Shown here piece after piece: positions 1-12,083 of a stretch of 12,083 bases of DNA. The first letter of the stretch is position 1; every line of letters begins with the position of its first letter. A model generated the notes under the pieces. The model saw only the letters and a list, made by a program, of their open reading frames with translations, did not search any database and was not told where the DNA came from. Origin of the DNA: Methylococcaceae bacterium (lineage in GTDB: Bacteria; Pseudomonadota; Gammaproteobacteria; Methylococcales; Methylomonadaceae); assembly GCA_947505055.1 (NCBI GenBank), contig CANNLO010000119.1, positions 1 to 12,083 of the forward strand, given 5' to 3'. The position numbers were made by a program, and so were the translations under genes.

Positions 1-650
1 AAGTGACGATTAAGTACATTGATGGTAAGCCGAGTGCGATTGATACGGTTGTCGTGTCGACGCAGCATGCGCCAGAACTCGCATTAAAAGATATCCGCGA
101 AGCGGTGATTGAGGAAATCATTAAACCGATGTTGCCCAAAGAGTTGATTAAGGGCGACATTAAGTTCCTGGTCAATCCAACCGGGCGCTTTGTGATTGGC
201 GGTCCTCAGGGCGACTGTGGCTTGACGGGTCGCAAGATTATTGTGGATACCTATGGGGGTGCCGCGCCACACGGTGGCGGTGCATTCTCAGGTAAAGACC
301 CTTCAAAAGTAGATCGTTCTGCCGCCTACGCGGGCCGTTATGTGGCGAAGAATATCGTTGCAGCGGGCCTGGCTTCTCGTTGCTTGGTGCAAGTGTCTTA
401 CGCCATTGGTGTTGCACAACCGACCAGCGTGATGGTCGAGACCTATGGCACCGGGAAAGTATCCAATGAAGTGTTGAGGCAGTTGGTGCTGGATCACTTT
501 GATCTACGTCCAAAAGGCATTGTGAAAATGTTAGATTTATTGCGTCCGATTTATACTAAGACAGCCGCTTATGGTCACTTTGGTCGTGACTTGCCAGAGT
601 TTACCTGGGAAGCGACAGATAGGGCCGCAGCGCTGAAAGCTTCGGTTTGA
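1..650 (+). CDS. metK: S-adenosylmethionine synthetase, C-terminal part (5' end outside window)
   Basis: MetK makes S-adenosylmethionine from methionine and ATP in the cytoplasm. About 215 residues are present, ending in a TGA stop at 648-650. The fragment carries the diagnostic glycine-rich phosphate-binding motif GGGAFSGKD at fragment residues 91-99, followed by the [10 protein letters not shown] segment, with [10 protein letters not shown] at 70-79 and the C-terminal GHFGR..PEFTWE region. The enzyme is usually about 385-390 residues, so roughly 167-175 N-terminal residues lie left of the window. The GTG at base 3 is internal, not the start. The gene has higher G+C than the genes to its right and is the chromosomal anchor of the locus; nothing suggests it takes part in polysaccharide synthesis. 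The next gene begins 55 bases later with no clear terminator between. Identification is secure. Confidence 0.97.
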
Positions 651-705: not shown

Positions 706-2166
706 ATGAATAAGATAAATACTCATAAAGTCATTCCGGTCATTCTGTGTGGTGGCTCTGGCACTCGCCTGTGGCCATTGTCGAGGGCGGGTTTTCCTAA
801 GCAGTTTTTAGTACTGTCGGGCACGACGAGTTTATTTCAGCAGGCCATTGAGCGTGTAAATGGCCTGGCGGCAGAGGACATTGTGGTCGGCGACACCTTG
901 ATCGTGACGGGGGAAGAGCATCGGTTCTTGGCATTGGATCAGCTACGTGAGATGCCTGAGGTGAGTGCGACTTTATTGTTAGAGCCCTTAGGACGTAATA
1001 CCGCGCCAGCGTTAACCTTGGCGGCATTACATGCCATTGAAAACGGTGATGATCCTATTCTAGTGGTGACCCCCGCGGACCAAACGGTAATGGATGGAGC
1101 AGCGTTTACCAAAGCCTTGCAACAAAGTGTTCGCGCTACGGCCGATGGCAGCATTGTCATTTTAGGTATTACGCCTGATAAGCCTGAGACCGGTTATGGT
1201 TACATCAAGCACCAAGGTCTGCAAGGTGTAAACAGTGAATACACTGTCGCTCAGTTCGCAGAAAAGCCAGATTTAGCCACAGCAGAGCGTTATCTAGCCA
1301 GTGGTGACTATGCCTGGAATAGTGGTATGTTTGTCTTAAAAGCCAGTACTTGGCTGAAAGCCTTGGCGCATTTTAGTCCAGCGATTTTAAGTAGAACGCA
1401 ACAAGCTTTCTCCCAAAAAACCGTTGATGCGCAGTTTGTTCGCCCTGATCAAGTGGCTTTTACCAATATTCCCAGCGACTCCGTCGACTACGCCGTTCTA
1501 GAAAAATGTCCTAGCTCAGCCTTTACCATCAAGATGGTGCCGCTAGATGCGGGGTGGAATGACTTAGGCGCTTGGGATGCGGTATGGCAAGTGAGTGCTC
1601 AGGATGGAGAGGGTAACGTCACGCACGGCGATACCTTATTGGCCGATACGACCAACACCTTTATTCATGCCAGCAGTCGCCTAGTTGGCACTGTGGGCGT
1701 AAATAATCTGATTGTGGTAGAAACCGCAGATGCGATTCTGGTGGCGGATAAGAGCCAAAGTCAGCATGTGAAAAAGTTAGTGAGTGAACTAGTAACATTA
1801 AAACGTTCTGAGCACATTCTCCCACGTAAAGTGTATCGTCCCTGGGGATGGTATGACAGCATAGACGAAGGTGTAGGTTTTAAAGTCAAGCGTATCCAAG
1901 TGAAACCTGGAGCAAGTTTAAGTCTTCAGAAGCATGTACACAGGGCCGAGCACTGGGTCGTTATCAAAGGATCTGCAGAAATTACGAACGGTGAACACGT
2001 CCTAAATTTATCAGAGAATCAATCCACCTATATTCCTCCTGGAACGCTACATCGCTTATCCAATCGTGGAGATATTCCACTTGAGATAATTGAAGTACAA
2101 TCCGGAAGTTATGTAGGTGAGGACGATATCGTGCGCTTAGAGGATGTCTATGGACGGGTTTTATGA
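706..2166 (+). CDS. manC: Mannose-1-phosphate guanylyltransferase / mannose-6-phosphate isomerase (bifunctional, type II)
   Basis: The enzyme forms GDP-mannose from GTP and mannose-1-phosphate; the fused C-terminal domain isomerises fructose-6-phosphate and mannose-6-phosphate. It has 486 residues, close to the usual 470-480. Nucleotidyltransferase domain: [12 protein letters not shown] at 16-27, PKQF at 31-34, [10 protein letters not shown] at 93-102, FAEKP at 184-188 and YAWNSGMF at 202-209. The cupin isomerase domain starts near 370, with RPWGWYDS at 378-385 and the metal-site region around Q408, H410, E415 and H416 ([10 protein letters not shown]). Both halves look intact. The ATG at 706 leaves ten residues before the first strand, as in relatives, but no strong ribosome binding site is seen. 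It overlaps fcl by ATGA at 2163-2166, implying translational coupling. G+C falls from about 55-60% near base 900 to about 40% near base 2000, so the 3' third looks more like the acquired cluster. No phosphomannomutase gene accompanies it here. Confidence 0.95.
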
Positions 2167-3134
2167 GTATTAAACAATCAAAAATTTATGTAGCAGGGCA
2201 TCGTGGTATGGTGGGCTCAGCTATTGTGCGTGAGTTACAAAAACAGAATAAAACTAACATTGTCGTACGCGCTCATTCAGAGCTCGATCTTTGCAATCAA
2301 CAGGCAGTTAGAGAGTTTTTTCAATCAGAGAAGCCTGACCAGGTGTATTTAGCAGCCGCTAAAGTCGGTGGTATCCATGCAAATAATACCTATCCAGCTG
2401 AGTTTATTTATGACAATTTAATGGTTCAGGCTAATGTTATTCATGAGGCTTGGCAAGCTGGAATTAAAAAATTACTTTTTTTAGGTTCAAGTTGTATCTA
2501 TCCAAAAGCTGTTAGTCAGCCGATGAAAGAGGAAGCACTGTTAACTGGTGAGCTTGAAGCTACTAATGAGCCTTACGCAATAGCAAAAATTGCAGGCATT
2601 AAGTTATGTGATAGTTACAATCGGCAATATGGCGTGGATTATCGTAGTGTAATGCCAACCAATCTATATGGTGTTGGAGATAATTATCACCCAGAGAATA
2701 GCCACGTTATTCCTGCCTTAATACGTCGCTTTCACGAGGCAAAGATCAATCATTTACATGAAGTTATTATTTGGGGATCTGGAACACCGATGCGTGAGTT
2801 CCTGTATGTTGATGATATGGCCGCGGCCAGTGTGTACGTGATGAACTTGGATAAAAGTGTCTATGATCTACATACGAAGCCAATGTTGGGCCACATCAAT
2901 GTAGGTTATGGTTACGATGTCACTATTAAAGAATTAGCGCAGAGCATTTCTGAAGTGGTGGGCTATCATGGATCGATTGGCTTTGATACTACAAAACCAG
3001 ATGGCACTCACAGAAAGTTAATGGATAGCAGTCGTTTAAATAGCTTGGGTTGGCAAACTAAAATTAAATTGAAGGATGGGCTTGCCATGGCCTATCAAGA
3101 TTATTTAGTGAACAATGAAGTGTTGAGGAAGTAG
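2163..3134 (+). CDS. fcl: GDP-L-fucose synthase (WcaG/Fcl type)
   Basis: This NADPH-dependent enzyme epimerises GDP-4-keto-6-deoxy-D-mannose at C3 and C5 and then reduces C4, giving GDP-L-fucose. It is an extended short-chain dehydrogenase of 323 residues, normal for the family. Visible features: the Rossmann motif GHRGMVG at 12-18, KVGGIHANN at 67-75, GSSCIYP at 108-114, the YxxxK pair Y138/K142, PTNLYG at 165-170 and H181. By alignment from memory with E. coli WcaG, S109, C111, Y138, K142 and H181 match its catalytic Ser, Cys, Tyr, Lys and His, so both epimerase and reductase activities should be intact. The start overlaps the manC stop by four bases and gmd follows five bases after its stop. 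Placing fcl before gmd reverses the commoner gmd-fcl order. A second, divergent homologue lies at 7013-7933. Confidence 0.95.
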
Positions 3135-3139
3135 GGATA

Positions 3140-4264
3140 ATGAGCAAACAAAAGATTGCATTAATAACAGGCATAACTGGGCAGGATGGCTCTTACTTGG
3201 CTGAGTTCTTGCTAGAAAAAGGCTACATGGTACACGGTATTAAGCGTCGCGCTAGCTCCCTTAATACGCAGCGCATAGATCATATATATCAAGATCCGCA
3301 TATTGAGAATGCGCATTTTAAATTGCACTACGGCGACCTAAGTGATACTAGTAACTTGATTCGTATTGTTCAAGAAACACAACCTGATGAGATTTATAAC
3401 TTAGGCGCACAAAGTCATGTGGCAGTCAGCTTTGAGAGCCCTGAATACACGGCGGATGTCGACGCATTAGGTACCTTAAGGCTACTTGAAGCTATACGCA
3501 TCTTAGGGCTCGAGAAAAAAACGCGTTTTTATCAGGCGTCTACTTCTGAGCTCTATGGTCTAGTACAAGAAATTCCACAAAAGGAAACCACGCCGTTCTA
3601 TCCGCGCAGCCCTTATGCGGCAGCTAAGATGTATGCCTATTGGATTACTGTAAATTATCGCGAGGCGTATGGTATTTATGCATGTAATGGGGTTTTATTT
3701 AATCATGAGAGTCCACGTCGCGGAGAAACTTTTGTGACACGCAAAATTACTCGTGGTTTAGCTAATATCGCGCAGGGCTTAGATGTCTGTCTTTACATGG
3801 GTAATTTAGATGCGTTGCGCGATTGGGGGCATGCAAAAGACTATGTTCGGATGCAATGGATGATGTTACAACAAGAATTACCTGATGATTTTGTAATTGC
3901 GACAGGTGTGCAGTACAGCGTACGTCAGTTTATTGAGTGGTCAGCGGCAGAACTTGGCATTAGATTGAGATTTGAAGGCAAAGGCGTCAATGAGATTGCA
4001 GTTGTAGCTTCGATTGACGGAAATGAAGCGCCTGCGATTAAGGTTGGTGATACTGTTGTGCGAATAGATCCACATTATTTCCGACCTACTGAAGTTGAGA
4101 CCTTGCTAGGTGACCCAACCAAAGCGAAAGAAAAATTAGGATGGGTGCCGGTGATTACTGTTCAAGAAATGTGCAAGGAAATGGTGGAAAGCGATTTGGC
4201 ACAGGCGAAAAAATTTGCTCTATTAAAACAGCATGGGTACCAGGTATCAATAAATGTTGAATAA
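3140..4264 (+). CDS. gmd: GDP-mannose 4,6-dehydratase
   Basis: Gmd converts GDP-D-mannose to GDP-4-keto-6-deoxy-D-mannose, the first committed step to GDP-L-fucose and also the entry to GDP-rhamnose, perosamine and related sugars. It has 374 residues, about the usual 372. Visible features: the NADP-binding motif GITGQDG at 11-17, [13 protein letters not shown] at 87-99, ASTSELYG at 133-140 with the likely catalytic T135 and E137, and YAAAK at 159-163 giving Y159 and K163. The [16 protein letters not shown] stretch typical of Gmd is at 188-203. A good ribosome binding site, GAGGAAG at 3125-3131, lies at the end of fcl eight bases before the ATG. All catalytic residues are present. Its product may feed both the adjacent fucose synthase and the transketolase/epimerase genes downstream; the second role is inference. 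Confidence 0.97.
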
Positions 4265-4301: not shown

Positions 4302-5078
4302 ATGGATAAAACAGTTATAAATAAAATGAAGCGACAAATAGTTCTTGCCGCACATTCTGCTGGTGAAGGACATATTCCGAGCGCATTTTCTATTTTGGAT
4401 TTGATTTGGATACTATATGACCGTGTAATGAATTTTGATGTATCTCGACCTAATGATATAGCAATGGACCGTTTTATTCTTAGTAAAGGGCACGCTTCTT
4501 TAGCTCTTTATTCAGTATTGGCAGTAAAAGGATTTTTCCAATTAGAGGATTTGACTACTTTCTGTAAATATGACAGTAAGTTTGGAGGTCATGCTGATTG
4601 CAATAAGCTTGCTGGAATTGAAGCTTCAACTGGATCGCTTGGTCATGGATTGCCGATATCGGTTGGCATTGCACTTGGTTCAAAAATTCTTAAACACGAT
4701 AATAGAATTTTTTGTTTAATTGGTGACGGTGAGTGCAATGAAGGGACGGTATGGGAATCCGCTCTGTTGGCGTCACATCATGAACTTTCTAATCTATGCT
4801 GCATCGTTGATTTTAATCATTCAACAGATCGTGCACTTAAGCTTGGTGACTTGGCAGGGAAGTTCTTGTCGTTCGGTTGGGAAGTCATAACAATACAAGG
4901 TCACAATCACGAAGAAATTTATGATGCCCTGACTCATGTCCCTACTCATAAGCCTGTCGCGATAATTGCAGAAACAATTAAAGGGTATGGTATTAAGCGC
5001 ATGGAAAACGAGCCAGCGTGGCATCATCGTGCCCCCAATGCAGATGAACTCAATAATATTCTCGAGGAACTGAAATGA
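4302..5078 (+). CDS. Transketolase, N-terminal (ThDP pyrophosphate-binding) subunit
   Basis: This is the first half of a two-gene transketolase and binds the pyrophosphate and Mg2+ of thiamine diphosphate. It has 258 residues; classical single-chain transketolase is about 660. Visible features: GHIPSAFS at 23-30 and SKGHASLALY at 61-70 (conserved substrate/cofactor-loop histidines), GSLGHGLP at 111-118, and the ThDP motif beginning GDGECNEG at 141-148 and ending DFN at 170-172. HHRAP lies at 241-245 near the C terminus. The pyrimidine-binding half is the next gene, which overlaps this one by ATGA at 5075-5078, so the two are probably made in equal amounts and form one enzyme. A cluster-embedded split pair next to nucleotide-sugar SDR genes suggests two-carbon ketol transfer to a sugar nucleotide rather than pentose-phosphate work; that is inference. 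The 37-base AT-rich gap before it carries only a weak GAAAG ribosome binding site at 4291-4295. Confidence 0.93.
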   Translation: MDKTVINKMKRQIVLAAHSAGEGHIPSAFSILDLIWILYDRVMNFDVSRPNDIAMDRFILSKGHASLALYSVLAVKGFFQLEDLTTFCKYDSKFGGHADCNKLAGIEASTGSLGHGLPISVGIALGSKILKHDNRIFCLIGDGECNEGTVWESALLASHHELSNLCCIVDFNHSTDRALKLGDLAGKFLSFGWEVITIQGHNHEEIYDALTHVPTHKPVAIIAETIKGYGIKRMENEPAWHHRAPNADELNNILEELK

Positions 5079-5965
5079 GCATGAGAAAACAATTTGTCAA
5101 GACCGTTGAAACGCAATTGGCCCATGATGATAAAGTTATTCTTCTGCTTGGAGATATTGGCGTATTTGGATTTCAGAAAGCATCTAAAGAGTTTGTTGGT
5201 CGAATCCATAATATTGGGATTTTGGAGCCAACCACAATTGGTTTAGCAGCTGGACTGGCTAAAACTGGATTTATACCAATTGTACACACGATTGCGCCGT
5301 TTTTGGTAGAACGAAGTTTTGAGCAGATAAAAATTGATTTTGGATATCAACGTCTCGGCGGTAATTTTGTAAGTGTTGGTGCCTCTTATGATTATGCATC
5401 ATTGGGTTGCACTCATCATTGTCCAGGCGATGTGGGGGTTTTGCAGAACATTCCTGGGATGGAAATTGTTGTGCCTGGAACAGCGACTGAATTCGATAGC
5501 CTTTTTCAAGAAGCCTATGCCAATGGGAATCCTACATATTATCGATTGAGTGAGCGTGAAAATCTTAGCTCACAACCTGTCAGATTTGGTCGAGCTAATG
5601 TGCTTAAAAAAGGCTCTCTTGCCACCATAGTGGCTGTTGGACCCACCCTTGACTATATCTTGCCGGCTGTCGAAGATCTAGATGTGGGTGTCATCTACTA
5701 CACAACAATTGCGCCTTTTGATTATGTGACACTCAACGAAAATTTGGCTGCCTCTGGCAAAGTTCTGTTAGTTGAACCTTTTTATTCCGGAACACTTACT
5801 CGAGAAGTTGCACAAGCAGCGAATCCAAAACCTGTAGTAATTGATAGCGTGGGTGTTCCACGTGAATTTTTGACCCATTATGGGCAAGCAACAGAACATG
5901 ACAAAGCTCTTGGTTTTACTTCGGAGAATATTCGTGTCAAATTAGAGGCACTTATCTATGGCTAA
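5075..5965 (+). CDS. Transketolase, C-terminal (pyrimidine-binding) subunit
   Basis: This is the second half of the split transketolase, carrying the ThDP pyrimidine-binding domain (about residues 5-165) and the transketolase C-terminal domain (about 180-290). It has 296 residues. The cofactor-activating glutamate is probably E51, in GILEPTTIGLAAGLA (48-62). Most relatives have E followed by Q or N here, so the proline at 52 is unusual. GCTHHCPGD at 111-119 matches the conserved histidine-bearing loop, and IPGMEIVVPG (126-135) and YYRLSE (155-160) are typical of this domain. Start choice: the ATG at 5075 overlaps the previous stop, and GAGGAA at 5064-5069 serves either this ATG or the one at 5081. 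Its end overlaps the next gene by eight bases. With 4302-5078 it should form one heteromeric active site; the acceptor substrate cannot be told from sequence. Confidence 0.92.
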   Translation: MSMRKQFVKTVETQLAHDDKVILLLGDIGVFGFQKASKEFVGRIHNIGILEPTTIGLAAGLAKTGFIPIVHTIAPFLVERSFEQIKIDFGYQRLGGNFVSVGASYDYASLGCTHHCPGDVGVLQNIPGMEIVVPGTATEFDSLFQEAYANGNPTYYRLSERENLSSQPVRFGRANVLKKGSLATIVAVGPTLDYILPAVEDLDVGVIYYTTIAPFDYVTLNENLAASGKVLLVEPFYSGTLTREVAQAANPKPVVIDSVGVPREFLTHYGQATEHDKALGFTSENIRVKLEALIYG

Positions 5966-7013
5966 TCTACTAGTTTCAATAATTGAAAATGATGCAAAAA
6001 AGCTGGTGGATGCAGCTAAACTCCATGACCTTGCTGGTAAATCTATTTTGCTAACCGGGGCCTCTGGCCTTCTTGGTATATATTTTTTAGCCAGTTTACG
6101 TGAATTATCCCATAGAGGCCTTGCCCCGCTATCTGTGACTGCAGTAGTGCATTCTGAGCTTGTGTATCCATTCAAGGAATTCCTGGATTTTGATGGTGCC
6201 AGTATAGTTCAGGGCGATTTAACTAATTTGGATTTTGTGAATGGACTAGGCAGTTTCGATTATATTATCCATGCGGCAGGTTATGGCCAACCGGGCCGGT
6301 TCATGGAAGATCAAGTAAAAACACTCCAACTTAATACTTCAACAACACTTGCTTTATTTAATTGTCTAGCAAAAGATGGCCACTTTCTCTTCCTTAGCAG
6401 TAGCGAAGTATATAGTGGGTTGCCTAACCCTCCTTATAAAGAAACTCAAATTGGCACAACTAATACAACACATTCAAGATCCTGTTATATTGAAGCTAAG
6501 AGATGCGGCGAAGCTATTTGCAACGCATATCGTGCTAGAGGAGTCAATGCAAACTCCGCTCGTTTAGCATTAGCCTACGGCCCTGGAACTAAACCTGCTG
6601 ATCGTCGCGTGATTAACTCATTCATTGAAAGAGGCGCCACTCAAGGAAAGATAACTCTTCAGGACATGGGTGCAGCCAGACGCACCTATTGTTATGTTTC
6701 GGATGCCGTTGAAATACTTTGGCACATTTTGCTGCGTGGAACTGAGCCTATTTACAATGTTGGGGGAATGTCAAGAACGACCATTGCAGAACTTGCTAGT
6801 AAAGTTGGGCACTATATGAATGTACCGGTTGAATTTCCAAAAGACTCGAAAGAGCTCGGCGGAGCCCCAGAAGACGTTTATTTAGATATGAGCTTAGTGC
6901 GACAAGAATTTAACAAGACACAGTTCATTTCATTTGATGAAGGCATTGCTCAAACTATTGAATGGCAGAAAGCACTCTATTCTACGGAATCAAAAACGAA
7001 GGACAAAAATTGA
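5958..7013 (+). CDS. NAD(P)-dependent nucleotide-sugar epimerase/dehydratase (extended SDR)
   Basis: This is an extended short-chain dehydrogenase of 351 residues acting on a nucleotide sugar; which one is not clear. About 27 residues precede the Rossmann motif TGASGLLG at 33-40. HAAGYGQPGRF (105-115) replaces the commoner H-A-A-x-x-G segment, SSSEVYSG is at 147-154, and the catalytic pair is Y177/K181 (YIEAK). RLALAYGPG (202-210) and the R-x-Y-C-Y-V-S-D-A stretch (242-250) are the sugar-binding and C-terminal family features. It looks nearest to the UDP-glucuronate decarboxylase/dTDP-glucose 4,6-dehydratase branch, but could be a 4-epimerase or a 4-ketoreductase. Ribosome binding site AGAGG at 5944-5948. 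The gene overlaps the transketolase gene by eight bases and ends in TGATG, sharing one base with the next start, so it is probably co-translated with both and acts in the same pathway. Confidence 0.85.
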   Translation: MANLLVSIIENDAKKLVDAAKLHDLAGKSILLTGASGLLGIYFLASLRELSHRGLAPLSVTAVVHSELVYPFKEFLDFDGASIVQGDLTNLDFVNGLGSFDYIIHAAGYGQPGRFMEDQVKTLQLNTSTTLALFNCLAKDGHFLFLSSSEVYSGLPNPPYKETQIGTTNTTHSRSCYIEAKRCGEAICNAYRARGVNANSARLALAYGPGTKPADRRVINSFIERGATQGKITLQDMGAARRTYCYVSDAVEILWHILLRGTEPIYNVGGMSRTTIAELASKVGHYMNVPVEFPKDSKELGGAPEDVYLDMSLVRQEFNKTQFISFDEGIAQTIEWQKALYSTESKTKDKN

Positions 7014-7933
7014 TGACAAAAACAATTGTTACAGGGGCAGATGGGTTGGTTGGTTATGCAATTCGACAAATTAACCTGTCAAATACAACTTATCTGGCAA
7101 GGCGGGATGTTGATCTTACAGATTTCACAACTACTAAAGATAGATTCTTAGAATTAAAGCCAGAAAATGTAATCCATTTGGCAGCGCAAGTAGGAGGAAT
7201 CGGTGGTAATTTGATTCACTCAGGGGAGTATTTTCGTAACAACATCCTGATTAATACAAATGTACTCGAAAGTGCTAGGGTTGCGGGAACCAAGAAACTT
7301 ATTTCATTTATGTCCACATGCGTATTCCCGGACAAATGCACTTATCCGTTGAATGAAAAAGATCTGCATAATGGCCCGCCTCATCCTTCAAACTTTGGAT
7401 ATGCTTATGCTAAGCGCATGCTTGAGGTGCAAAGTAGTGCGTATCGCAAAGAGTGGAATTGTAATTATATCGTAGCAATTCCAACCAATATATATGGACC
7501 GAATGACAACTTTAGCTTAACTGAAGGACATGTGGTGCCTGCTTTGATTCATAGAACATATCTAGCAAAGAAAAATAATACTAATCTCAGTGTTTGGGGA
7601 AGTGGGAAACCACTACGTGAATTTGTTTATTCGGATGATATTGCAAGGTTGACGTTATGGGCTATTGAAAACTATTCTGATGATACACCTATCATCTTTA
7701 CCTCCGGAATTGAAGTGTCCATTCGCGAACTAACAGAAGTTGTAGCAAAGAAAATGAAGTTTAAAGGCAACTTGATTTTTGATTCAAGCAAGCCCGATGG
7801 ACAATTTCGTAAACCATCGGATACAACAAAATTGAAAAGTTGCCTTCCTGATTTTAACTGGACGCCACTTGAAGAAGGCATTGAACGAACCGTTGATTGG
7901 TTTCAAAGTAATTACCCAAATGTGAGGATGTAA
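7013..7933 (+). CDS. Second GDP-L-fucose-synthase-type epimerase/reductase (GFUS/TSTA3-like)
   Basis: This extended SDR has 306 residues. The ATG at 7013 shares one base with the preceding TGA and has GAAGGA at 6998-7003 nine bases upstream; in-frame upstream codons belong to the previous gene. Visible features: TGADGLVG at 7-14, HLAAQVGGIGGN at 55-66, STCVFPDK at 101-108, YAYAK at 130-134 (Y130/K134), PTNIYGPNDNF at 157-167 and H173. C103 and H173 match the two acid/base residues of GDP-fucose synthases, so epimerisation plus reduction is expected. Motifs such as STCVFPDK, HNGPPHPSNFGYAYAKRM (119-136) and SKPDGQFRK (259-267) resemble animal GFUS more than the WcaG-like enzyme at 2163-3134. 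Its substrate is probably a GDP-linked 4-keto-sugar other than, or as well as, the fucose precursor. Calling it simply fcl would hide that difference. Confidence 0.88.
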   Translation: MTKTIVTGADGLVGYAIRQINLSNTTYLARRDVDLTDFTTTKDRFLELKPENVIHLAAQVGGIGGNLIHSGEYFRNNILINTNVLESARVAGTKKLISFMSTCVFPDKCTYPLNEKDLHNGPPHPSNFGYAYAKRMLEVQSSAYRKEWNCNYIVAIPTNIYGPNDNFSLTEGHVVPALIHRTYLAKKNNTNLSVWGSGKPLREFVYSDDIARLTLWAIENYSDDTPIIFTSGIEVSIRELTEVVAKKMKFKGNLIFDSSKPDGQFRKPSDTTKLKSCLPDFNWTPLEEGIERTVDWFQSNYPNVRM

Positions 7934-7940
7934 CTTGATT

Positions 7941-8888
7941 ATGGACAATAATTTAAATAGTAATGCAGTGAAGTCTCTTTCAGTTGAGGATTTTGAAATT
8001 GCTTTTGGTGAAAAACTAAGTCCCTATGTGATAGAGCGGATTAACCAATACTCATTTCAGTATGAAGAATTCTCATTGGAGGAAAATGAAAGTCTTTTGA
8101 TTAAAATTGTCGAGACGTTACTTGACCCAAATCTTCTGCAATCAGGAGAGCATCGACTTGATCAATGGGAATCAGGGTGGGGCGAGAATTTAGAGTTGTT
8201 TTTAAAAAATCCATCTAATATTGATTTGATTATTCCTAAATATTTTAATAAATATGGTGCTGTACGTTGGTGTGGACGCTTTATAAGGCCTATTTCAGAA
8301 AAATTTGAGTGTCATTCACTTGCAATCATTCAAGACTGGTTGTTTGATAAATATTTACGTGATGCCTCCGCTATTTATGAATTCGGCTGTGGTACAGGAC
8401 ACAATCTACTACGTGCTCGTAAGGTAAATTCTAATGCCAGTCTTTATGGTTTGGATTGGGCAACAGCTTCTCAGAATATTATTAATCGTTTAGGTGAACA
8501 TAAAGTTGACCCTGATATTCAGGGTAGGCGTTTTGACTACTTTAATCCTGATGAATCGTTTCAACTATCGCCCAATTCAGTCATATATACGGTGGCATCG
8601 CTTGAGCAAGTAGGTACCCGCTGGGATAAGTTTATAGAATATATTCTACGAAATCGGCCAAAACTTTGTATTCATATTGAGCCTGTTGCTGAGCTACTTG
8701 ATTCATCTAAATTAATTGATTACTTGTCGATTGAATATTTTAAAAAACGTAACTATCTAAATGGCTTTCTTGACGGTTTACGTCAGCTTGAAAAAGAAGG
8801 GCAAGTGCAAATTCACTTTGCTCAACGCACTCATATTGGAAGCCTTTTTATTGAAGGATATTCAGTTGTGGTATGGTCGCCAACTTAA
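7941..8888 (+). CDS. Class I SAM-dependent methyltransferase with a long N-terminal region
   Basis: The predicted protein has 315 residues. The SAM-binding motif I, YEFGCGTGHNLL at 146-157, is followed by LYGLDWA at 168-174, where D172 would hold the ribose hydroxyls. About 140 residues precede motif I and include the tryptophan-rich segment HRLDQWESGWGENL (71-84), probably a substrate-recognition domain specific to this family. No signal peptide or membrane segment is evident. Start choice is open: GAGGA at 7924-7928 is six bases before a TTG at 7935 and twelve before the ATG at 7941. I chose the ATG; the alternative adds two residues. It begins seven bases after the fcl-like gene, so it belongs to the same transcription unit, and C- or O-methylation of the sugar made by that block is the likely role. 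The acceptor cannot be read from the sequence. Confidence 0.8.
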   Translation: MDNNLNSNAVKSLSVEDFEIAFGEKLSPYVIERINQYSFQYEEFSLEENESLLIKIVETLLDPNLLQSGEHRLDQWESGWGENLELFLKNPSNIDLIIPKYFNKYGAVRWCGRFIRPISEKFECHSLAIIQDWLFDKYLRDASAIYEFGCGTGHNLLRARKVNSNASLYGLDWATASQNIINRLGEHKVDPDIQGRRFDYFNPDESFQLSPNSVIYTVASLEQVGTRWDKFIEYILRNRPKLCIHIEPVAELLDSSKLIDYLSIEYFKKRNYLNGFLDGLRQLEKEGQVQIHFAQRTHIGSLFIEGYSVVVWSPT

Positions 8889-8949: not shown

Positions 8950-9909
8950 GTGAGAGATTTTGTTTTTGATTTAGATCGGAAGTCACCGAAAAGTCCTGCC
9001 ATATCAGTAATTTGTATTAATAAGAATCATTCTGAGCTTATTGAGAGCAATATATTATCAGTACTGTCACAAAATTATGAAGATTTTGAATTTATCATTG
9101 CGGATGGTGGATCAGAAGACTCATCATTAGAAGTTATTAATAGATATAAGTTTATCAGATTGGTGTCTGGGAAAGATTCATCTCGAATAGAAGGTTTAAA
9201 TCGTGCTTTACAAGCTGCACATGGCCGTTATGTAATGGTGACAACTTCTACGGATGGATATTTATCCCGAGAATGGTTTAAGAATGCAGCATCATTATTA
9301 GATAATGACTCACGTATTTCATTAGTATTTGGTGCCAGTGCAAATATGAATGAAGATGGAGTTTTGGGCACCATTACTTTCCCAACTCTTTTTCCATTTT
9401 ACAAAGTGCCCATGAAAGAGAAATGGTCTGATATGTGGCTAATGAGAGGCCTAGCAAAATCCTATCTTCCGGAGTTAAATTATTGCGTACGAATGGATAT
9501 TTTTAAGAAGTTAATGGGGCCAAGCATCGAATTTCCCGAGCTAAATGAGATCGATCCTATTTTGAGATTTCATTTCGAATTTAATAGACTAGGCTACCTT
9601 CCAAATTATATGCCAATATTAGCCAATTTTGGCCGTACTCATAACAACCAAGAGCAACATAGTGAAAGAAATCAGAGTTATATTCGTATATATGATAAAG
9701 CTTGGAAAAAGTATCGTAAAGGCGTGATATTTGGAAGTTATTTACACGGCATTCGAGATGCCAAAGGGAAAGTAATTGCTCAAAGCTTTATACATGCATT
9801 ATTAATGCGAATATGTTTGGTATTAGATATGTTCTTTATTCAACTGTTTATAACGAACACTGTACATTATGCTAAATGTCTCCTAAAGAAATGCATTGGT
9901 TTTAGGTGA
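8950..9909 (+). CDS. Glycosyltransferase family 2 (GT-A fold)
   Basis: This probably transfers a sugar from a nucleotide-sugar donor to the lipid-linked repeat unit on the cytoplasmic face of the inner membrane. It has 319 residues. The GT-A start SVICINKNHSELI is at 19-31, ADGGSEDSS (51-59) is the nucleotide-binding loop, and the position of the metal-binding DxD motif reads T-S-T-D-G (99-103), retaining only the final aspartate. NRALQAAHGRYVMV at 84-97 precedes it as in other family 2 enzymes. Residues about 281-304 are hydrophobic and may attach to the membrane. The start is GTG, supported by AGGGG at 8939-8943 six bases upstream. It follows the methyltransferase gene after 61 bases and is followed by a 176-base gap. 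Donor and linkage cannot be predicted; a fucose or modified-sugar transferase would fit the context. Confidence 0.87.
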   Translation: MRDFVFDLDRKSPKSPAISVICINKNHSELIESNILSVLSQNYEDFEFIIADGGSEDSSLEVINRYKFIRLVSGKDSSRIEGLNRALQAAHGRYVMVTTSTDGYLSREWFKNAASLLDNDSRISLVFGASANMNEDGVLGTITFPTLFPFYKVPMKEKWSDMWLMRGLAKSYLPELNYCVRMDIFKKLMGPSIEFPELNEIDPILRFHFEFNRLGYLPNYMPILANFGRTHNNQEQHSERNQSYIRIYDKAWKKYRKGVIFGSYLHGIRDAKGKVIAQSFIHALLMRICLVLDMFFIQLFITNTVHYAKCLLKKCIGFR

Positions 9910-11790: not shown

Positions 11791-12083
11791 TTGAAAAGAA
11801 TAATAAAAGTTATACACAGAACAATATCAATGAATGGCTTAAATGTGATGACTATCATATTTTCAATTCGTGGTTTTATACCATTCATAGGTGATTTAGT
11901 TAAATATTGGCGTAATACAACTCGTGACGGATTGCCTATTGAGTTTTCAAATTTATTTGTTGTTCTAGCCGATCGATATAAATCTGCAGGGCAAGCAAGA
12001 GGACATTATTTTTTTCAGGACTTGTGGGCTGCAAAAAAAATATACTCTAGGAGGCCAGCTAGGCATGTCGATATTGGATCATC
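11791..12083 (+). CDS. DUF268-like protein, N-terminal part (3' end outside window)
   Basis: 97 complete codons are visible before the window ends. An in-frame TAA at 11776-11778 limits the start, and TTG at 11791 is the first possible start, with the strong ribosome binding site GAGGA at 11779-11783 seven bases before it. The next ATG, at 11830, has no good site. The N-terminal part is basic and partly hydrophobic (about 17-36). Residues 71-79 (GHYFFQDLW), followed by AAKKIY at 80-85 and RHVDIGS at 91-97, look like the start of a DUF268 domain, a family often met in surface-polysaccharide clusters and thought to have a methyltransferase-like fold. This match is from memory, not a search. The HVDIGS strand could be a SAM-type glycine-rich loop, so a methyltransferase is the main alternative. 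Function is unknown. Confidence 0.7.
   Translation, partial: MKRIIKVIHRTISMNGLNVMTIIFSIRGFIPFIGDLVKYWRNTTRDGLPIEFSNLFVVLADRYKSAGQARGHYFFQDLWAAKKIYSRRPARHVDIGS

What the first reader, a model, noticed from the sequence alone, without database searches (positions are those of the whole stretch)
4302..8888. Five-gene coupled module: split transketolase, two nucleotide-sugar SDRs and a methyltransferase, a candidate pathway for an undescribed branched GDP-sugar
The genes overlap by 4, 8 and 1 bases and the last is 7 bases away, so they are probably translated together. A ThDP ketol-transferase has no place in GDP-fucose synthesis, which the three upstream genes already complete. Because the fourth enzyme belongs to the GDP-fucose-synthase family, the substrate is probably GDP-linked, for example GDP-4-keto-6-deoxymannose from Gmd. 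A coherent scheme is two-carbon transfer to the keto group, then epimerisation, reduction and methylation, giving a branched or extended sugar. The gene identities are seen; the scheme is inference.
Basis: partly seen in the sequence, partly recalled or inferred. Interest (0 to 1): 0.72.

Follow-up and report, generated by a model that had tools for sequence, protein, structure and literature searches.

The report
Transketolase-based branched GDP-sugar module
Next to ordinary GDP-fucose genes, this bacterial surface-sugar cluster carries a set of enzymes that probably adds a two-carbon branch to a GDP-bound sugar with a transketolase, and phages carry versions of the same set.

Summary
The window has a contiguous run manC-fcl-gmd-TKN-TKC-SDR1-SDR2-MT, with overlaps of 4, 8 and 1 bases and a 7-base gap. 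TKN-TKC-SDR1 is a conserved unit, patchy in bacteria and found in dozens of IMG/VR phage contigs. Of 53 dereplicated viral groups, 50 carry SDR1 and 41 carry GMD, ColD or a GDP-fucose-synthase relative within 7 kb. Whole-record searches found the GMD family in 31 of 50 records, CDP-glucose dehydratase in 0, the dTDP family in 3.

TKC keeps the catalytic Glu and His, but the Asp of its closest solved relatives is Leu in 118 of its 119 closest homologues. Of 79 phage SDR1 loci, 61 have the transketolase pair and 12 instead another split ThDP pair (E1alpha/E1beta) directly upstream of SDR1. Best reading: ketol transfer to a GDP-4-keto-6-deoxyhexose, then reduction of the branch ketone by SDR1, a GDP, transketolase-type analogue of the CDP-linked yersiniose pathway. 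No reaction was tested; branch carbon, product and MT target are unknown. A review knows split transketolases for such chemistry only as unassayed proposals from Streptomyces (PMC12247030, section 2.3 read).

The parts
706..2166 (+). manC, bifunctional mannose-1-P guanylyltransferase/mannose-6-P isomerase: supplies GDP-mannose
   Evidence: TIGR01479 607.7 bits, cut-off 372.95
2163..3134 (+). fcl, GDP-L-fucose synthase
   Evidence: NF047922 527.4 bits, cut-off 500
3140..4264 (+). gmd, GDP-mannose 4,6-dehydratase: makes GDP-4-keto-6-deoxymannose, the proposed acceptor or its precursor
   Evidence: TIGR01472 588.2 bits, cut-off 415
4302..5078 (+). TKN, N-terminal (ThDP pyrophosphate) half of a split transketolase
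   Evidence: PF00456 134 bits; 202 bits to the N chain of the split transketolase 6yak
5075..5965 (+). TKC, pyrimidine and C-terminal half of the split transketolase
   Evidence: PF02779 69.2 and PF02780 34.5 bits; 81 bits to the C chain 6yaj; 57-71% identical proteins in L001-L004
5387..5422 (+). TKC signature YDYASLGCTHHC; Leu110 (codon 5402-5404) stands where 6yaj and DXS have Asp, His114 kept
   Evidence: Leu110 in 118 of the 119 closest proteins and 50 of 53 viral groups; His114 in 119 of 119 and 53 of 53
5958..7013 (+). SDR1, extended SDR, proposed NADP(H)-type reductase of the ThDP-made branch ketone; core partner of the pair
7013..7933 (+). SDR2, GDP-fucose-synthase-like epimerase/reductase; best solved match 4e5y/4b8w (326 bits; human, recalled), 1bsv (E. 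coli, recalled) 173
   Evidence: NF047922 239.2 bits, below the 500 cut-off; Ser/Cys/Tyr/Lys/His kept
7941..8888 (+). MT, class I SAM-dependent methyltransferase of an unnamed family with an extra N-terminal helical part; target atom unknown
   Evidence: no Pfam or NCBIfam match; model pLDDT 93.6, methyltransferase fold; 33 of 48 viral relatives lie with TKC
8950..9909 (+). family 2 glycosyltransferase, downstream context (surface polysaccharide cluster)
   Evidence: PF00535 54 bits
10086..11585 (+). Wzx-type flippase, downstream context
   Evidence: PF01943 50 bits

Best explanation
The run is a branched-chain nucleotide-sugar pathway attached to GDP-fucose genes of a surface-polysaccharide cluster. 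Gmd makes GDP-4-keto-6-deoxymannose (established for this family, recalled). The Fcl-like SDR2 epimerises it (inferred). The split transketolase TKN/TKC takes a two-carbon ketol unit from a ketose phosphate or hydroxypyruvate and adds it to the ring ketone, most simply C4, giving a tertiary alcohol with a hydroxyacetyl branch (inferred). SDR1 reduces that branch ketone with NADPH to a 1,2-dihydroxyethyl branch (inferred). MT methylates the product at an unknown position (fold predicted, target unknown). The sugar would then go through glycosyltransferases into the repeat unit. It works like yersiniose synthesis (4,6-dehydratase, 3-dehydratase, ThDP carboligase, reductase) but with GDP instead of CDP and a split transketolase instead of YerE. 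Phage versions swap parts: ColD-like or MT, RmlC-like or Fcl-like epimerase, transketolase pair or E1alpha/E1beta pair.
For: (1) Linkage: 50 of 53 dereplicated viral groups with TKC have SDR1 within 7 kb and 52 have TKN; 4 of 4 genome loci at 57-71% TKC identity have TKN, SDR1 and an Fcl relative. (2) GDP substrate: GMD family in 31 of 50 viral records (8 above its cut-off), dTDP-glucose dehydratase family in 3 (none above cut-off), CDP-glucose dehydratase in 0; ColD-like dehydratase with His-His at the PLP-lysine site in 36 of 37 sequences, best solved matches WbdK/ColD at 214-218 bits against 109 for perosamine synthase (one representative), in 24 of 53 groups. (3) ThDP chemistry: TKC Glu51 and His114 invariant, the Asp of split TK and DXS is Leu110 in 118 of the 119 closest proteins and 50 of 53 viral groups. 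(4) Swap: of 79 phage SDR1 loci (not dereplicated), 61 have the TK pair, 12 have E1alpha/E1beta directly upstream of SDR1 instead, none both, 6 neither; examples E1a-E1b-SDR1-ColD-SDR2-like and E1a-E1b-SDR1-ColD-x-GMD. Two-subunit alpha-keto-acid-dehydrogenase-type ThDP enzymes branch sugars in antibiotics (PMC12247030, passages read). (5) SDR1: best structural match is an NADP-dependent nucleotide-sugar reductase; no acidic residue in the beta-2 strand. (6) Fcl-like and RmlC-like genes never occur together in the 50 viral groups with SDR1, as if each supplies one epimerisation.
Against: No biochemistry, no polysaccharide structure. The window has no ColD. GMD was not found in 19 of 50 viral records (many are fragments) nor in G004. 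The Leu110 motif is not a strict marker: the Azospirillum TK pair beside a gmd keeps Asp, and L074 and L077, which have SDR1, have Glu. The ColD/MT exclusion (2 both, 21, 20, 7; Fisher p 2.9e-6) ignores kinship; on the TKC tree about 3 of 4 independent pairs go the expected way and none the other, which cannot reach significance. MT also occurs with ColD-like genes in E1-type loci, so MT and ColD need not act on the same carbon. ColD alone is not tied to TK: 3 of the 80 best ColD loci have TKC. The E1 pair is not tied to SDR1 (5 of its 80 best loci), and 5 of those 80 also hold a distant TK pair at 27-33%. SDR2-type enzymes can reduce C4 themselves (recalled), which would compete with branching. 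SDR1 is by sequence closest to UXS, a redox-neutral decarboxylase. The same proposal for miharamycin is still unproven (PMC12247030).
Confidence: 0.6

Rival explanations
1. The ThDP enzyme does branch a GDP sugar, but SDR1 acts before it (making or moving a ring ketone) and the branch goes on another carbon such as C3; SDR2 or another reductase finishes.
For: SDR1 keeps the Ser/Thr and Glu of its S-x-E-V-Y motif and the Tyr-x3-Lys, as dehydratase and UXS-type SDRs do, and scores highest against UXS. Known ThDP branching occurs at C3 or C4 (PMC12247030, passage).
Against: Best structural match is an NADP-dependent reductase and the beta-2 strand holds no acidic residue in 119 proteins. SDR1 follows two differently paired ThDP enzymes, as expected of an enzyme acting on their product.
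Confidence: 0.16
2. Two pathways lie side by side: GDP-fucose (manC-fcl-gmd) and an unrelated TK-SDR1-SDR2-MT pathway on another nucleotide or free sugar phosphate.
For: fcl and gmd already suffice for GDP-fucose from GDP-mannose; GMD was not found in 19 of 50 viral records; phage contigs with GMD and Fcl relatives but no TK are common.
Against: SDR2 is itself in the GDP-fucose-synthase family; 41 of 53 viral groups have GMD, ColD or an Fcl relative; CDP dehydratase in 0 of 50 and dTDP family in 3 of 50; an annotated GDP-mannose 4,6-dehydratase also lies near the TK pair on an Azospirillum plasmid.
Confidence: 0.13
3. The pair makes a free higher sugar phosphate (heptulose or octulose) that is later activated, as in GDP-heptose or lincosamide octose routes (recalled).
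For: Normal transketolase chemistry needs only an aldehyde acceptor.
Against: The Asp of TK and DXS relatives is mostly lost; the best solved matches of the window's SDRs are nucleotide-sugar enzymes; a long-chain sugar route would not explain replacement by E1alpha/E1beta next to ColD.
Confidence: 0.06
4. The pair is an extra pentose-phosphate transketolase, in phages an auxiliary metabolic gene, as a virome survey reads viral tkt (PMC4053976, passages read).
For: Transketolase domains and catalytic residues kept.
Against: Tied to SDR1 in 50 of 53 viral groups and to GDP-sugar genes in 41; motif change; neighbours identified are glycosyltransferases and sugar enzymes.
Confidence: 0.05

Closest known systems
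Yersiniose A pathway (YerE, CDP-3,6-dideoxy-4-keto-glucose; Yersinia and other O-antigens)
   Same: ThDP-dependent C2 addition to a nucleotide-bound 4-keto deoxy sugar, then proposed reduction of the branch, in surface polysaccharide (PMC12247030 and PMC4753412, passages read). A PLP/His 3-dehydratase accompanies many phage versions, as recalled for yersiniose.
   Different: GDP instead of CDP; split transketolase (ketol, hydroxyacetyl) instead of the single-chain pyruvate-decarboxylating YerE; SDR1 as proposed reductase; in the window no 3-dehydratase but a methyltransferase.
Split-gene transketolases of miharamycin and amipurimycin clusters, and 13 Streptomyces sequences of Krug et al. 2024 (both as cited in PMC12247030)
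   Same: Split transketolase proposed to move a hydroxyacetyl group onto a keto sugar; not assayed.
   Different: Those are nucleoside-antibiotic and other Streptomyces clusters; here GDP-sugar clusters of proteobacterial and candidate-phylum genomes and of phages. Their sequences were not held, so kinship was not tested.
Two-subunit alphaKADH2 (E1alpha/E1beta-type) sugar-branching enzymes: AviB1/B2, Pau11/12, KbDH
   Same: Two-subunit ThDP enzymes adding C2 to keto sugars (PMC4753412 and PMC12247030, passages); an E1 pair replaces the TK pair upstream of SDR1 in 12 of 79 phage loci.
   Different: Pyruvate donor giving acetyl; E1_dh plus Transket_pyr domains instead of TKN/TKC. That AviB and Pau proteins are E1-type is recalled; no sequence comparison was made.
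GDP-colitose pathway (Gmd, ColD, ColC; recalled)
   Same: Gmd, ColD-like and Fcl-like genes accompany many phage modules; WbdK/ColD entries are the best solved matches.
   Different: Colitose synthesis has no ThDP enzyme (recalled); no ColD-like gene was found in the window or in L001-L004 (L001 is a 4-kb contig).
Carboxydothermus hydrogenoformans split transketolase (6yaj, 6yak)
   Same: Closest solved sequence to both halves.
   Different: It keeps the Asp before Gly-x-x-His; TKC has Leu110.

Membership tests
Split transketolase (ThDP enzyme) | Transketolase_N, pyrimidine-binding and C-terminal domains on two chains | tested here: met
   PF00456, PF02779 and PF02780 all above cut-off
Split transketolase (ThDP enzyme) | ThDP-activating Glu and active-site His of TKC | tested here: met
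   Glu51 and His114 in 119 of 119 proteins and 53 of 53 viral groups; role of these positions recalled
Pentose-phosphate transketolase | Asp before Gly-x-x-His that contacts the 2-hydroxyaldehyde acceptor (role recalled) | tested here: not met
   Asp in 6yaj and DXS, Leu110 here
YerE-type carboligase | single-chain acetolactate-synthase-like ThDP enzyme (recalled) | tested here: not met
   TKN and TKC are two chains matching transketolase models; TPP_enzyme_C only 19.4 bits, below cut-off 21.9
Yersiniose-type pathway | CDP-glucose 4,6-dehydratase as source of the 4-keto sugar | tested here: not met
   0 of 50 viral records; 1 of 4 genomes, G001, a bin with 10 gmd hits and probably mixed; the window has gmd
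Yersiniose-type pathway | PLP 3-dehydratase with His in place of Lys | tested here: inconclusive
   near TK in 24 of 53 viral groups; absent from the 12-kb window, whose flanks are not held
ThDP sugar-branching pathway | C2 transfer to a ring ketone giving a tertiary alcohol | not testable with these tools
   needs enzyme assay
GDP-mannose 4,6-dehydratase (gmd) | TIGR01472 score above 415 bits | tested here: met
   588.2 bits
GDP-L-fucose synthase (SDR2) | NF047922 equivalog cut-off of 500 bits | tested here: not met
   239.2 bits
GDP-L-fucose synthase (SDR2) | epimerase/reductase residues Ser, Cys, Tyr, Lys, His (roles recalled) | tested here: met
   all present in SDR2; across 27 relatives in TK loci Ser, Cys, Lys, His 27 of 27 and Tyr 26 of 27
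NADP(H)-dependent SDR reductase (SDR1) | no acidic residue at the end of beta-2; catalytic Tyr and Lys | tested here: met
   no Asp or Glu in columns 60-65 of 119 proteins and 55 locus rows; Glu is common at 67; Tyr 117 of 119, Lys 119 of 119. Cofactor use itself was not tested
UDP-xylose synthase (SDR1) | NAD-binding Asp after VV in beta-2 (VVDNF in human UXS; role recalled) | tested here: not met
   SDR1 has VVHSE. HMMER's printed alignment to UXS is shifted by three columns there; its alignment to 8v4g pairs His65 with Arg
ColD (phage cluster c3) | active-site His instead of PLP Lys; WbdK/ColD as best solved match | tested here: met
   36 of 37 His-His; 214-218 bits to WbdK/ColD entries for one representative

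The most novel reading that the evidence does not exclude
Bacteria and phages share an undescribed, modular GDP-sugar branching system in which a split transketolase adds a ketol unit to a ring ketone of GDP-4-keto-6-deoxyhexoses and SDR1 reduces the branch. It would hold natural ketone-accepting transketolases outside antibiotic clusters, make 4-C-(1,2-dihydroxyethyl)-6-deoxy or 3,6-dideoxy sugars that I know from no glycan, and in phages swap the ThDP enzyme (TK or E1alpha/E1beta), the epimerase (RmlC-like or Fcl-like) and the tailoring step (ColD or MT).
Probability: 0.47. Interest if true: 0.82.

Novelty: new variant of a known kind. Interest (0 to 1): 0.7.

Why it matters
A 2025 review states that transketolases acting on ketones to make branched sugars are only proposed, with 13 split-gene Streptomyces candidates and none characterised in vitro (PMC12247030, section 2.3 read). 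This module gives a family of assayable candidates with a predicted nucleotide, a predicted substrate (the Gmd product) and a predicted next enzyme. It would add a GDP branch to a field whose polysaccharide examples in that review's passages are CDP-linked, and give a concrete function to part of the viral 'transketolases' that a virome survey read as pentose-phosphate enzymes (PMC4053976, passages read). It also suggests that phages carry pathways for elaborate sugars.

Tried and rejected

Choices behind the counts. One search took 81 of 87 loci; L089-L094 (TKC 98 bits or less, L092 without a usable ORF) were dropped, and duplicates L008-L014 left out. Each 90% group is represented by its member with most partner genes, which favours presence. 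ColD was counted as cluster c3 with His-His anywhere in the protein. Scans were capped: 80 kept of 85, of 544 or more, of 109 and of 336; one search returned all 48. The 79 SDR1 loci, 48 MT loci and 80 ColD and E1 loci were not dereplicated and hold near-duplicates. Each IMG/VR scan needs an exact short pattern, so distant relatives are missed.
Full report
What is there. The window is part of a bacterial surface-polysaccharide cluster. After a partial metK-like gene (identity recalled from the sequence) it has manC, fcl and gmd (all above their NCBIfam cut-offs), then TKN, TKC, SDR1, SDR2 and MT, then a family 2 glycosyltransferase and a Wzx-type flippase. Since manC/fcl overlap by 4 bases, fcl/gmd are 5 apart and gmd/TKN 37 apart, all eight genes may be one operon (inference).

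It is a conserved unit. A scan of species genomes with TKC found seven loci; the four with 57-71% identity (L001-L004) all have TKN-TKC-SDR1 in that order and an Fcl relative, two have gmd nearby, three have SDR2 and two have MT. The three at 40-42% (L005-L007) have the transketolase halves without SDR1. Exact longest-contig lengths shared between protein-search lists give 45 coincidences for TKC and SDR1 against 0.7 by chance. It is rare: searches of 369 and 379 genomes at E 1e-70 found SDR1 only in the two centre genomes.

Phages carry it. A scan of IMG/VR (2.9 million contigs) with a TKC alignment kept the best 80 of 85 relatives. After dropping six weak loci and collapsing at 90% TKC identity there are 53 viral groups: TKN in 52, SDR1 in 50, GMD in 23, ColD-like in 24, Fcl-like in 22, MT in 22, RmlC-like in 15, all within 7 kb. 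Neighbouring genes match PHROG families for clamp loader, late sigma factor, SbcD-like nuclease, UvsY-like protein, helicase and translation repressor; 20 of 53 groups have at least one of nine such markers in the fetched stretch, 10 a T4-type core one. Of 50 records searched whole, 12 have a Gp23 capsid match and 12 a terminase match. For the others the viral label rests on IMG/VR's own classification. Other neighbours include GT10 and GT11 (fucosyltransferase-type) families (one representative each), which use GDP-sugars (recalled).

Which nucleotide. Over whole records, the GMD family matches 31 of 50 at E 1e-40 or better (8 above the curated cut-off), the dTDP-glucose dehydratase family 3 (none above cut-off) and the CDP-glucose dehydratase family none. 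Cluster c3 is ColD-like: the best solved matches of a representative are WbdK/ColD entries at 214-218 bits against 109 for perosamine synthase, with His-His where aminotransferases have the PLP lysine in 36 of 37. ColD acts on GDP-4-keto-6-deoxymannose (recalled). SDR2 is in the GDP-fucose-synthase family (326 bits to 4e5y/4b8w, human as recalled), below the equivalog cut-off. In the four genome loci's genomes, gmd was found in 3 of 4 and the CDP enzyme in 1 of 4, that one (G001) having 10 gmd hits and so probably a mixed bin.

What the transketolase does. TKC keeps the catalytic Glu (51) and His (114) in all 119 closest proteins and 53 viral groups. The Asp of the Asp-Gly-x-x-His motif in the closest solved split transketolase and in DXS is Leu110 in 118 of the 119 and 50 of the 53. 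In transketolase that Asp contacts the hydroxyl of the aldose acceptor (recalled), so its loss fits a different acceptor. The motif is no strict marker: the Azospirillum pair beside a gmd keeps Asp. TKN keeps the GDG motif and the histidines seen in the alignment.

The swap. An SDR1 scan of IMG/VR (best 80 of 109 relatives) gave 79 loci with a clear SDR1: 61 have the TK pair, 12 have instead an E1alpha/E1beta pair (PF00676 and PF02779 in the three pairs scanned) ending just before SDR1, none has both, and 6 have neither, 4 of these being near-identical contigs. In L238 the order is E1alpha-E1beta-SDR1-ColD-SDR2-like, in L251 E1alpha-E1beta-SDR1-ColD-x-GMD; in L019 it is TKN-TKC-SDR1-ColD-Fcl-GMD. 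Two differently paired ThDP enzymes thus occupy the same slot in front of the same reductase-like enzyme. Two-subunit ThDP enzymes of the alphaKADH2 type are known to add two-carbon units to keto sugars in antibiotic pathways (PMC4753412 and PMC12247030, passages read). The E1 pair is not specific to SDR1: 5 of its best 80 loci have SDR1, while 48 have a ColD-like gene and 5 a distant TK pair.

Exchangeable parts. Among 50 viral groups with SDR1, ColD and MT occur together in 2, ColD alone 21, MT alone 20, neither 7; RmlC-like and Fcl-like together 0, alone 15 and 21, neither 14 (Fisher p 2.9e-6 and 3.6e-5). These p values ignore kinship. On the TKC tree (49 labelled rows, quick method) ColD changes at least 7 times and MT 10; independent pairs never go the same way, but there are too few for significance.

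Verdict. The evidence favours a GDP-linked, transketolase-type member of the ThDP sugar-branching pathways: new in its enzyme class, nucleotide and hosts, not in its basic logic. No reaction was shown. Branch carbon, stereochemistry, donor and final sugar are inference. My literature searches (open-licence library) found the transketolase idea only in one review, for Streptomyces, and none linking transketolase with colitose and phage or split transketolase with polysaccharide. On checking, the odds of the main reading were lowered slightly (0.62 to 0.60, novel case 0.48 to 0.47) because the Leu110 motif has exceptions, one of them beside a gmd.

Noticed in passing
L142-L221 (viral loci): Phage contigs carry a GMD - ColD-like - Fcl-like set without transketolase, i.e. 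a likely GDP-colitose-type pathway: of 55 loci of 14 kb or more, 46 have GMD and 43 an Fcl relative. No paper in the library held both 'GDP-L-colitose' and 'bacteriophage'.
   Followed up: partly
L304-L383 (viral loci): A second phage module: E1alpha/E1beta ThDP pair with RmlC-like (56 of 80) and ColD-like (48 of 80) genes; product unknown.
   Followed up: partly
L105:7932-8813 and relatives in L101, L102, L106, L107, L110, L119, L121, L130: An unnamed protein of about 293 aa (no Pfam match) directly after MT in the E1-type loci.
   Followed up: no
L224 (Azospirillum sp. TSA2s plasmid p2): A split transketolase pair at 37.5% TKC identity lies near an annotated GDP-mannose 4,6-dehydratase and directly before a SAM methyltransferase; it keeps the Asp that TKC has lost.
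   Followed up: partly
L227, L228, L248, L263: Near-identical phage contigs with GMD, Fcl, ColD-like and SDR1 but no ThDP enzyme recognised within 7 kb.
   Followed up: partly
INPHARED records H21-H24: Four short unannotated 'Listeria phage' records match TKC at 28-29%; perhaps host DNA.
   Followed up: no
window 238-513 (-), 11791-12081 (+): An antisense ORF inside the first gene, probably spurious, and a partial ORF at the window's end, unidentified.
   Followed up: no
P0302 and one further SDR1 homologue: The catalytic Tyr177 is Phe in 2 of 119 SDR1 homologues (P0302 seen).
   Followed up: no
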